Shown here: one piece after another, positions 6,761 through 8,937 of the stretch
Position numbering within the stretch: position 1 is the first letter of the stretch
Layout: each line of letters begins with the position of its first letter
NCBI RefSeq assembly: GCF_031501865.1
Contig: NZ_JARRCW010000001.1
Location: 567,001 to 631,000 of the forward strand
Source of the DNA: Pseudovibrio sp. M1P-2-3
Lineage (GTDB): Bacteria > Pseudomonadota > Alphaproteobacteria > Rhizobiales > Stappiaceae
DNA: 64,000 nucleotides
Reading direction: 5' to 3'
The notes under the pieces: model-generated
Database searches by the model: none
Told to the model about the DNA's origin: nothing
Seen by the model: the letters and a program-made list of their open reading frames with translations, nothing else
Made by a program: the position numbers and the translations under genes

Positions 6761-6985
6761 ATGAAACAGGATATTCATCCAGACTACCACACCATCACAG
6801 TTGTGATGACAGATGGTTCTGAATACAAAACACGCTCTACATACGGCGCTGAAGGTGCAACTTTGCAGCTGGACATTGATCCAAGCTCTCACCCAGCATG
6901 GACTGGTGGTGATCGTCAGCTTATGGACCGTGATGGCCGCGTATCTAAGTTCAAAAACAAATTTGCAGGCTTTTTGGGCGGTTAA
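6761..6985 (+). CDS. rpmE: 50S ribosomal protein L31
   Basis: A 74-residue protein beginning [20 protein letters not shown] and containing SSHPAWTG, the conserved L31 pattern; it sits at the inter-subunit bridge of the ribosome. There is no cysteine in the protein, so this is the zinc-free form of L31. AAAGGA precedes ATG 6761 by about 8 bases. The gene is monocistronic, with its own promoter and a terminator at 7009-7040. Confidence 0.93.
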
Positions 6986-7008: not shown

Positions 7009-7040
7009 AAAAAGCCTCGGTTTATCTGGGGCTTTTTTTA
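7009..7040 (+). terminator. Intrinsic terminator after rpmE
   Basis: AAAAAGCC (7009-7016) pairs with GGCTTTTT (7030-7037), the stem being extended by T-G and C-G pairs, and a T run follows. The stop codon of the convergent gene at 7038-8297 lies at the right end of the hairpin, and the A run on the left gives a T run for the opposite strand, so it may serve both genes. Confidence 0.8.
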
Positions 7041-8297
7041 TTGTCTCTTGTTATCAACTAATGAGTTGACCATATCTGAAATTTCATCGTAATCGGCTCC
7101 ATCATATAATTCGCCCAGGGGTTCACGTTCACCCAATGCGCCTTCAAGGTGTGGAAATGAGAGCGTATAGCGCTCTATCCCTCTAAGTGCCCATTTGTGA
7201 TAGGCTGGCTGATGCGCAGTCAGTCCAATTCTTGTCCGCTTGGGGGAAATACCCAATCTTTCCAACTCTGTCCGGATTCTGTGAATGGCTTTAGCTGAAA
7301 TCACAAACTTCTTCATGAACTGGTTAAAACGAGATGCCTGCATTTGATTGTTGAGTTGGTGTAGGTCAGTAGGTGAATTAATAAAAGTCCACCCCCCTGA
7401 CGTTCTGGTGTCTTTAGAGCGTGTAAAGTTCTTGTTTAGTAATTCGGGATTCCTGGAAATATCATAGTATTTAACCTTTCCCCCGTGCAGAGTATACAAA
7501 GAGCCGTTTTTCGAGCGTACGGCAATGGGGGAGGAGAGGCTTCTAATAAAATCTGCTGCTGCAGCTTTATCTTCACCCTCTAATATATCAATAACTTGCA
7601 GACACTTTTGGTCCAAGCAAATAGTATGGGAGCGTAAAGCACTTGCCAGTACATCTTCTATGTAAAGGTTGGAAGCCTGAAAACATCTAAGGACAACTTC
7701 CAATTCATCTTCAGAGAAAAGTTCAGGGTGACTCAGTGTTGAGCAGGCTTGTTGGTTAAGTCGGTATGCGTTTAAAATGTAAAAAACGGGGTTCGCCTCC
7801 AGCAACTCTCCAGTGTTTAGTGACAGGCCATTATCGTCTAATTTTTGAATAAGTTGATTGGCCTCGATAGCATTGGAAACTGCTTCTAGAATACTGCTGC
7901 TCCACCTCAAAAGTCTGGTTGGTAGTCCCGCTGTTGCCATTTCCTCAAGAAGGTCCAGTGACAATTGGTGGGCTTTTAGTTTTCCCGTGAAGTTATTTAC
8001 CAGATTACTTTCATTTACATAATCTAGCCCCCCTTCGTTTCTACTTTCGAATACAGGAGGGCAAGCGATTGAATTTTGGTCAGCCCGGCCCAGGAACCAA
8101 AGACCTGAAGAAATAGGGCGAGGGAAGCGGTCATCAGTATACCCGAGAGGGGCGATTGGGTCAGGGCTGATAACTTCCGAAAGATATTCATAGGGACGTT
8201 GTATAATATCAAGAACATCTGAGATGGATTCAATAAGTATGGGAGAACCATCTCTTTGAAACGTGCAGGAGTTTTCTGGGGTCTCTCGCGAGTTCAT
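7038..8297 (-). CDS. FRG-domain-like protein, divergent
   Basis: A 419-residue soluble protein. Residues 65-73 (GLWFLGRAD) and 121-138 (ATAGLPTRLLRWSSSILE) match the two halves of the FRG domain, usually WFRGQ and QHxGLPTRLLDW, with an intervening acidic residue (E96) where the domain has one. Three usually conserved residues are changed: the R of FRG, the QH pair and the D before the W. The C-terminal 250 residues match nothing I recognise. ATG 8297 is preceded by AGGACA at about 9 bases. FRG proteins have no settled function. The gene lies between rpmE and the rcdA-like gene, which usually sit close together in this order, so it looks like an insertion. The domain call rests on these motifs alone. 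Confidence 0.6.
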   Translation of the reverse strand: MNSRETPENSCTFQRDGSPILIESISDVLDIIQRPYEYLSEVISPDPIAPLGYTDDRFPRPISSGLWFLGRADQNSIACPPVFESRNEGGLDYVNESNLVNNFTGKLKAHQLSLDLLEEMATAGLPTRLLRWSSSILEAVSNAIEANQLIQKLDDNGLSLNTGELLEANPVFYILNAYRLNQQACSTLSHPELFSEDELEVVLRCFQASNLYIEDVLASALRSHTICLDQKCLQVIDILEGEDKAAAADFIRSLSSPIAVRSKNGSLYTLHGGKVKYYDISRNPELLNKNFTRSKDTRTSGGWTFINSPTDLHQLNNQMQASRFNQFMKKFVISAKAIHRIRTELERLGISPKRTRIGLTAHQPAYHKWALRGIERYTLSFPHLEGALGEREPLGELYDGADYDEISDMVNSLVDNKRQ

Positions 8298-8412
8298 TTG
8301 TGATTGTCCTGAAAACGAACCTAGTCCTTGTTTGCTTCAGGATTCTATAGGAATCTCTTTAAGAGAGCCTCTATCAAATTAAAGGGGATCTAGGAGCGGT
8401 ACATAATAGCCT

Positions 8413-8937
8413 CTACCCATGAAAAGCTTCTCGAATTTTTGATATCTGATCAGCAATAGGGTTTTGTGCAGTACTCACTCGGTCGCTTTGAAGCTCTAAA
8501 GCTATCATTTTATCCATATGCTGAATGCGTTCTTGTAATCGTATGGAGCGTTGAATTAAATCCAGCATTGGATCGGGAAGCTTCCCATTTAGATTATTTG
8601 GATCGAAAGAAAAGAAACGGTCAATTTTTATGCCCTTGCATTCCTTGGTTGCTTGTTCAGGTGTAATCTCTCCTTCCTTTGCGGCTCTTTGCAGAAGGAG
8701 CCAAGATGCAAGTTGCATCAAACGGGTAGTTAAACGCATGGATTCCGATGCATAAACGAGGGAGTTCGCTGGCTGTAGCTTTCGTGCAGCTTCTCGCCCT
8801 TCACCATCCAGATAGGAAGCTGTCTCTTCTATGAGGTTCATGCCTTCTTTATAGAGGCCGGTAAAGCTTGGAGATTTAAACAATCTACTCGTAAATGGGA
8901 TGGGCAAGGCACTTTGTTTATTCTTGCTATCATTCAT
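8413..8937 (-). CDS. RcdA-like protein (DUF1465), cell-cycle proteolysis adaptor family
   Basis: A 174-residue helical protein with YLDGEGR at 42-48, ESMRLTTRLMQ at 65-75 and SWLLLQRA just after, the hallmark of DUF1465, the family of Caulobacter RcdA. RcdA links the CpdR-primed ClpXP protease to CtrA and other substrates. The middle section (residues 90-130) differs from Caulobacter RcdA, so the regulatory role is inferred from family membership. Start ATG 8937. The gap to the FRG-like gene downstream is 115 bases, and the two could be co-transcribed. Confidence 0.8.
   Translation of the reverse strand: MNDSKNKQSALPIPFTSRLFKSPSFTGLYKEGMNLIEETASYLDGEGREAARKLQPANSLVYASESMRLTTRLMQLASWLLLQRAAKEGEITPEQATKECKGIKIDRFFSFDPNNLNGKLPDPMLDLIQRSIRLQERIQHMDKMIALELQSDRVSTAQNPIADQISKIREAFHG

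What the first reader, a model, noticed from the sequence alone, without database searches (positions are those of the whole stretch)
7038..8297. Degenerate FRG-domain gene inserted in a conserved cell-cycle neighbourhood
The gene carries both halves of the FRG domain (WFLGRAD and GLPTRLLRW), but three usually conserved residues are changed. It sits between rpmE and the rcdA-like gene, which are normally close neighbours in Rhizobiales. FRG proteins have no settled role and often occur in variable regions. It may be an inactive or retargeted member.
Basis: partly seen in the sequence, partly recalled or inferred. Interest (0 to 1): 0.55.

Follow-up and report, generated by a model that had tools for sequence, protein, structure and literature searches.

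The report
Long-kept, active-site-less FRG gene
A marine bacterium keeps, between two housekeeping genes, a relative of a bacterial immune-enzyme family that has lost almost all of the residues the family rarely changes, yet four related genomes have kept it in the same place for a long time, so it probably now does a non-enzymatic job.

Summary
The 419-aa gene at 7038-8297 (-) is a real but very divergent FRG homologue: below Pfam's cut-off alone (14.1 bits), but clear in profile comparison (hhalign 99.5%, E 2.6e-22). It lies between rpmE and rcdA, which elsewhere are mostly convergent neighbours with a short gap. Full-length orthologues occur in 4 of 16 genomes of its genus (Pseudovibrio relatives), always at this site; the other 12 have an 87-204 base gap and no detectable remnant. 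All four orthologues have lost the QH pair, the D of LLDW and the F of motif II, fixed in 40 of 40 viral-contig FRGs, and most of motif III, yet keep PTRLLxW (T or S), evolve mainly at third codon positions, and share a new, highly conserved DPIAPxGxTDDxFPRP motif. A canonical FRG models as an ADP-ribosyltransferase fold. Best reading: a catalytically dead FRG retained for a non-enzymatic role, possibly transcribed with rcdA. A second, separate degenerate FRG pair sits in an lgt-midA-pgeF-like cluster in another family. New variant of a known kind; function unproven.

The parts
7038..8297 (-). Degenerate FRG (ART-fold) gene, 419 aa
   Evidence: ORF; Pfam FRG E 0.096 alone, orthologues to 1.6e-5; PDC-S15 2.5e-7; hhalign to 40 FRGs 99.5%, E 2.6e-22
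8115..8162 (-). Codons 46-61, DPIAPLGYTDDRFPRP: motif specific to this subgroup, just before the FRG motif I strand
   Evidence: 12 of 16 residues invariant in 4 orthologues against 87 of 352 overall; region picked after seeing the alignment
8079..8099 (-). Codons 67-73, WFLGRAD: motif I with the R changed to L
   Evidence: Canonical R and G in 40 of 40 viral-contig FRGs; here L-G, orthologues R-G, R-A, H-V
7902..7937 (-). Codons 121-132, ATAGLPTRLLRW: motif II with QH and D lost, PTRLLxW kept
7494..7514 (-). Codons about 262-268: motif III (canonical RxxxQxxxF), R and Q lost
   Evidence: alignment uncertain here
7009..7037 (.). rpmE terminator hairpin that ends right before the FRG stop codon; with an A-run on one side and a T-run on the other it may serve both strands
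   Evidence: Scan hit on the + strand; bidirectional use read from the sequence
8298..8412 (.). 115-base gap between the rcdA stop and the FRG start, no terminator-like site
   Evidence: none in the corresponding gaps of the three orthologous loci
8413..8937 (-). rcdA (protease adaptor, DUF1465), same strand, upstream
6761..6985 (+). rpmE (ribosomal protein L31), convergent

Best explanation
An FRG-family gene (ART fold; the family is proposed in the literature to act on NAD+ in prokaryotic immunity) settled in the 3'-3' gap between rcdA and rpmE early in, or before, the history of this genus. It lost the family's strictly conserved pocket residues but kept the fold core, gained new conserved segments, and has been kept by selection since. 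It most likely works now as a non-catalytic binding or regulatory protein, read through from the rcdA transcript and ending at the terminator it shares with rpmE. Shown by computation: homology, fixed site, loss of canonical residues in all four, intact frames, third-position-biased change, gained motif. Inferred: loss of catalysis, binding role, co-transcription. Not known: the ligand or partner.
For: FRG homology. Same site in 4 of 16 congeners and nowhere else full-length: 87 family genomes, 397 order genomes, 385 class genomes; these sets overlap. Non-carriers lack it at the site. H of QH and D of LLDW are kept in 46 of 48 non-orthologous FRGs found without motif patterns, and in 0 of 4 orthologues. 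Eight canonical positions: 0 of 8 invariant among the orthologues, against 87 of 352 overall and 12 of 16 in the gained motif. Codon positions 1/2/3 are 68/83/39% identical between G008 and G011; pN 0.24, pS 0.78. Window-protein model: all 20 PDB entries listed at Z 2 or more are, by their titles as I read them, ADP-ribosyltransferase-fold proteins (best Z 4.1). GC3 0.41 is like the neighbours' (0.38-0.43). No terminator-like site between rcdA and the gene in 4 of 4 loci.
Against: No activity or expression data. P. flavus (G012) still has FRG at motif I. Motif III alignment is unsure, so migrated catalytic residues are possible. dS is saturated in most pairs, so dN/dS is not estimable. The full model is poor outside the core (mean pLDDT 66) and its fold matches are weak (Z under 5). 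The conserved new motif could be a new active site. Absence of a terminator-like hit is weak evidence for read-through.
Confidence: 0.6

Rival explanations
1. Retargeted enzyme: still an NAD+-using or other transferase, with a new catalytic set built from residues conserved only in this subgroup (TDD/FPRP before motif I, LNAYRLN, TLHGGK).
For: New segments are strongly conserved: 12 of 16 and 8 of 11 residues invariant in four orthologues; D, R, N, H are catalysis-capable; R of PTRLL kept in 4 of 4.
Against: The canonical H and D, and mostly the motif I R and motif III R/Q, are gone; conserved residues may equally be structural or make an interface.
Confidence: 0.2
2. Still a phage-defence factor in which this protein senses or sequesters, e.g. 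a decoy or regulator of canonical FRG proteins.
For: Relatives fall in PADLOC's candidate defence class PDC-S15; G008 and G011 also encode an intact canonical FRG elsewhere.
Against: No canonical FRG was found in the window's genome: only the gene itself with profile A1 up to E 10, none with Pfam FRG; no defence gene seen beside it; fixed single-gene site.
Confidence: 0.1
3. Specific partner of RcdA, modulating ClpXP adaptor function.
For: Directly downstream of rcdA on the same strand in 4 of 4 carriers; RcdA is a scaffolding ClpXP adaptor in Caulobacter (PMC8973945 passages).
Against: The rpmE-rcdA gap also takes unrelated cargo elsewhere (hemerythrin in G027, YciI and YnfA-like in G065, an unknown protein with a signal-like N-terminus in G008/G011), so position may only reflect a permissive site.
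Confidence: 0.06
4. Decaying remnant of a mobile defence gene.
For: Lost canonical residues; patchy distribution in the genus (4 of 16).
Against: Intact frames in four genomes that are 34-63% identical in this protein; third-position bias close to that of rcdA; strong conserved motifs.
Confidence: 0.04

Closest known systems
FRG domain family, Pfam PF08867
   Same: Same order of elements: motif I strand, helix and PTRLLxW strand, C-terminal strand and helix with I...L..LG; profile match 99.5% over 128 columns
   Different: Below Pfam's cut-off; lacks the QH pair, the D of LLDW and the motif II F in 4 of 4 orthologues, and most of motif III; has an N-terminal DPIAP..FPRP insert and about 70- and 35-residue inserts
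PADLOC candidate defence class PDC-S15
   Same: All four orthologues match model PDLC04938, best E 2.2e-10
   Different: No defence context seen at the site; canonical residues lost
ART superfamily folds (Rhs ART domains TreX/TreTu, Tpt1/KptA)
   Same: A canonical FRG model matches them at Z 5.8-6.0; the window model lists only ART-fold entries, Z at most 4.1
Second degenerate FRG pair, L101 (G266) and L143 (G166)
   Same: L in place of the motif I R, no QH, E in place of D, set in a housekeeping gene cluster
   Different: Not specifically grouped with the window's clade in the tree; lies between lgt-like and midA-like genes, not beside rcdA; about 260 aa without the extra inserts; L143 keeps the motif III R and Q

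Membership tests
FRG (PF08867) | Scores above the curated cut-off | tested here: not met
   14.1 bits against 25
FRG (PF08867) | Homology over the domain by profile comparison | tested here: met
   hhalign 99.5%, E 2.6e-22, columns 20-189; orthologue at 1.6e-5
FRG (PF08867) | [FY]RG in motif I | tested here: not met
   FLG in the window, FRG in P. flavus, YRA and YHV in the P. exalbescens pair
FRG (PF08867) | QHxGxPTRLLDW in motif II | tested here: not met
   PTRLLxW kept; QH and D lost in 4 of 4
FRG (PF08867) | RxxxQxxxF in motif III | tested here: not met
   alignment there is less sure
ART superfamily | ART fold | tested here: inconclusive
   Core only, Z at most 4.1 for the window; canonical FRG relative Z 6.0
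ART superfamily | NAD+-dependent activity | not testable with these tools
   Needs a biochemical assay
PDC-S15 (candidate defence) | Match to PDC-S15 profile models | tested here: met
   2.5e-7; 4 of 4 orthologues, best 2.2e-10; the library gives no cut-off
PDC-S15 (candidate defence) | Protects against phage | not testable with these tools
   Needs a phage challenge

The most novel reading that the evidence does not exclude
FRG immune effectors have been turned, more than once in Hyphomicrobiales, into housekeeping pseudoenzymes: here an rcdA-linked ART-fold protein with a new DPIAPxGxTDDxFPRP site that senses a nucleotide or partner and tunes ClpXP-adaptor-dependent proteolysis, and independently in another family inside an lgt-midA-pgeF-like cluster.
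Probability: 0.12. Interest if true: 0.7.

Novelty: new variant of a known kind. Interest (0 to 1): 0.45.

Why it matters
FRG proteins are treated as candidate phage-defence enzymes on profile matches alone. A lineage that has kept an FRG fold for a long time without the family's fixed residues, at one chromosomal site, shows that such a match need not mean an active defence enzyme. It also gives a natural contrast set (46 intact against 6 degenerate sequences) for finding which residues carry activity.

Tried and rejected
Tpt1-like Arg-His-Arg-Arg tetrad: canonical FRG has R33, H86, R92, R179 and matches Tpt1 in fold, so I asked whether the tetrads correspond. In Tpt1 they are Arg18, His19, Arg68, Arg121, with R and H adjacent, so the layouts do not correspond; dropped.

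Phage and plasmid origin: tblastn in 50,697 phage and 72,556 plasmid records gave no match; viral contigs gave no relative of the orthologue alignment. Solved structures: none by sequence for the window protein (best E 0.56) or the FRG profile (best E 0.058). The viral structure library gave nothing usable for the window model (best E 0.17); Foldseek against the PDB for the canonical model had no match below 1e-3, and the ART result rests on the VIA second look. A first genome-contig scan with the single protein found nothing; the alignment did.

ABC transporter 'present only beside carriers': an apparent pattern caused by my out-of-frame query; with the right frame the transporter is found in all 16 genus genomes. 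Its labels are to be ignored.

Conservation counts: the 40 viral-contig FRGs were found partly by the patterns [LMA]PTRL[LI]DW and ..QH[HYF][GR], so 40/40 for Q, H and D is biased; they are 40 of the 78 listed after leaving out weaker or partial ones. The check without motif selection is: 51 unique sequences, of which 3 are the orthologues and 48 are not. In the 48, R33, H86 and D95 are kept in 46, the exceptions being L101 and L143; G34 is kept in 48; Q85 is R in 5 (L123, L124, L132, L240, L241) and H in L101 and L143; R179 is N or Y in 5 others. So Q85 and R179 are less fixed than the viral set suggests.

Gain against loss: the locus tree puts the 12 non-carriers on one side (support 80; 76/80 with the mixture model), but rooting inside the genus is weak (55), so 'gain before the genus plus one loss' and 'gain in a carrier clade' cannot be separated.

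Literature: the searches listed no account of degenerate FRG proteins; PMC9503650, PMC6333775 and PMC8973945 were read as passages only, all others as search listings.

Full report
What is there. The finding's coordinates are exact: an ORF of 419 aa at 7038..8297 (-), ATG to TAA. Its stop codon abuts the rpmE terminator hairpin at 7009-7037. Upstream on the same strand, 115 bases away, is rcdA (8413-8937; RcdA equivalog); rpmE faces it from the other side.

FRG homology. Pfam FRG alone is sub-threshold (14.1 bits, E 0.096; cut-off 25). Three further lines agree: of the four orthologues three hit Pfam FRG, the best at 1.6e-5; all four hit a PADLOC PDC-S15 model, the best at 2.2e-10; and the four-sequence profile aligns to 40 FRG proteins with 99.5% probability, E 2.6e-22. 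A search with the orthologue profile finds FRG proteins in other families over the FRG region (e.g. E 2.7e-9).

Where it occurs. Full-length orthologues are in 4 of 16 genomes of the genus. None of the other 71 of 87 family genomes has one (6 have a domain-only match). In a 397-genome order sample only G000 and G008 had it (13 genomes matched in all), and in a 385-genome class sample only G000 (11 matched in all); the samples overlap and draw on a larger group.

The site. Of 61 genomes searched with RcdA, 59 had a match; apart from the window's own, 58 loci were read. rpmE was found beside rcdA in 46 of 58, always convergent; the gap between matched ends is 81-290 bases in 38, 359-903 in 5, and 1439-2016 in the three other carriers. 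Of the five wider gaps, two hold genes with a Pfam match (hemerythrin in G027; YciI and YnfA-like in G065). In G008 and G011 another ORF of 181-197 aa lies between the FRG gene and rpmE, with no Pfam match for the one tested. The gap is thus a permissive place as well as the fixed home of this gene. In the 12 non-carrier congeners the gap is 87-204 bases, with no tblastn trace of the gene better than E 0.59.

History. In a five-gene locus tree G000+G012 and G008+G011 are each strongly paired (100), and the 12 non-carriers fall on one side (80; 76/80 with the mixture model). One gain and at most one loss suffice. GC3 (0.407) is like the neighbours' (0.377-0.426). Identity between orthologues is 34-63% against 48-74% for RcdA in the five pairs computed: the gene is old, and changes faster than RcdA in the wider pairs and about as fast in G000-G012.

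Constraint. G008 against G011: codon positions 1/2/3 identical in 68/83/39%, pN 0.24, pS 0.78; RcdA gives 82/84/42%, pN 0.18, pS 0.72. Synonymous sites are saturated, so I quote no dN/dS. Frames are intact in 4 of 4. (One search lists one TAA inside the G008 profile match; the ORF is open to its own stop at 358 aa, so I read this as the match running past the end of the gene.)

What is lost and what is new. Among 40 FRGs from viral contigs, motif I R and G, motif II Q, H, P, T, R, L, L, D and F, motif III R and Q and a following F are invariant. In the four orthologues Q, H, D and the motif II F are lost in all; the motif III pair is lost apart from one R and one Q in poorly aligned columns of two orthologues; motif I RG is LG, RG, RA and HV; P, R, L, L, W are kept. 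The viral set was partly chosen by motif, so I repeated the count on 48 non-orthologous FRGs found by profile search: R33, H86 and D95 are kept in 46 of 48 and G34 in 48 of 48. The exceptions, L101 and L143, are a second degenerate pair. Among the orthologues the eight canonical positions are 0 of 8 invariant, against 87 of 352 overall; the subgroup's own DPIAPxGxTDDxFPRP segment is 12 of 16 and its LNAYRLN region 8 of 11. These regions were picked after seeing the alignment. Loss of the old set with strong conservation of a new one is what a change of job leaves, rather than decay.

Structure. A canonical FRG from a viral contig folds well (pLDDT 90, pTM 0.88). The PDB chains listed for it by VIA-align are led by ADP-ribosyltransferases (Rhs ARTs, Tpt1 and others, Z 5.0-6.0), in agreement with the statement that Frg belongs to the ART superfamily and might function as a NADase (PMC9503650, passages). 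These Z values are modest; the consistency of the list is the argument. The window protein's model is good only in the core (mean pLDDT 66); all 20 listed entries are ART-fold by their titles, with Z at most 4.1.

Expression. No terminator-like site was found in the rcdA-FRG gap in any of the four loci. Read-through from rcdA, ending at the hairpin shared with rpmE, is the simplest arrangement but is inferred.

A parallel. L101 (G266) and L143 (G166), two genera of one other family, carry L for the motif I R, no QH, and E in place of D. Each lies between an lgt-like gene and a midA-like methyltransferase gene, with a pgeF-like gene next (these three gene names are recalled from the translations, not from a profile call). 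Full-length members were found in only these 2 of 397 order genomes (19 matched at all). They do not group specifically with the window's clade (a quick tree with long branches), so the losses look independent, but this is not firm.

Verdict. The gene is a homologue of FRG but is not filed as a member of the canonical family, since its defining residues were tested and not met. Most likely it is a retained pseudo-ART with a binding or regulatory role; the partner is unknown. The link to RcdA rests on position and strand alone.

Noticed in passing
L226:4696-5472 (+), L227:6730-7521 (+): A second degenerate FRG pair (L for the motif I R, no QH, E for D) between lgt-like and midA-like genes in two genera of another Hyphomicrobiales family, its ORF overlapping the next one.
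   Followed up: partly
L042:3200-3793 (+), L045:4750-5295 (-): An unknown 181-197 aa protein with a signal-peptide-like N-terminus sits between the FRG gene and rpmE in both P. exalbescens genomes; the one tested has no Pfam match.
   Followed up: partly
L061:3669-4493 (-); L089:4330-4950 (+): The rpmE-rcdA gap carries a hemerythrin gene in G027 and YciI plus YnfA-like genes in G065, so the 3'-3' gap accepts varied cargo.
   Followed up: partly
L097/L228 (G008:C1, about 648.2-648.9 kb) and L096/L229 (G011:C5, about 55.8-56.4 kb): Both P. exalbescens genomes also carry an intact canonical FRG gene (QHYGLKTRLLDW) in what looks like the same second neighbourhood.
   Followed up: partly
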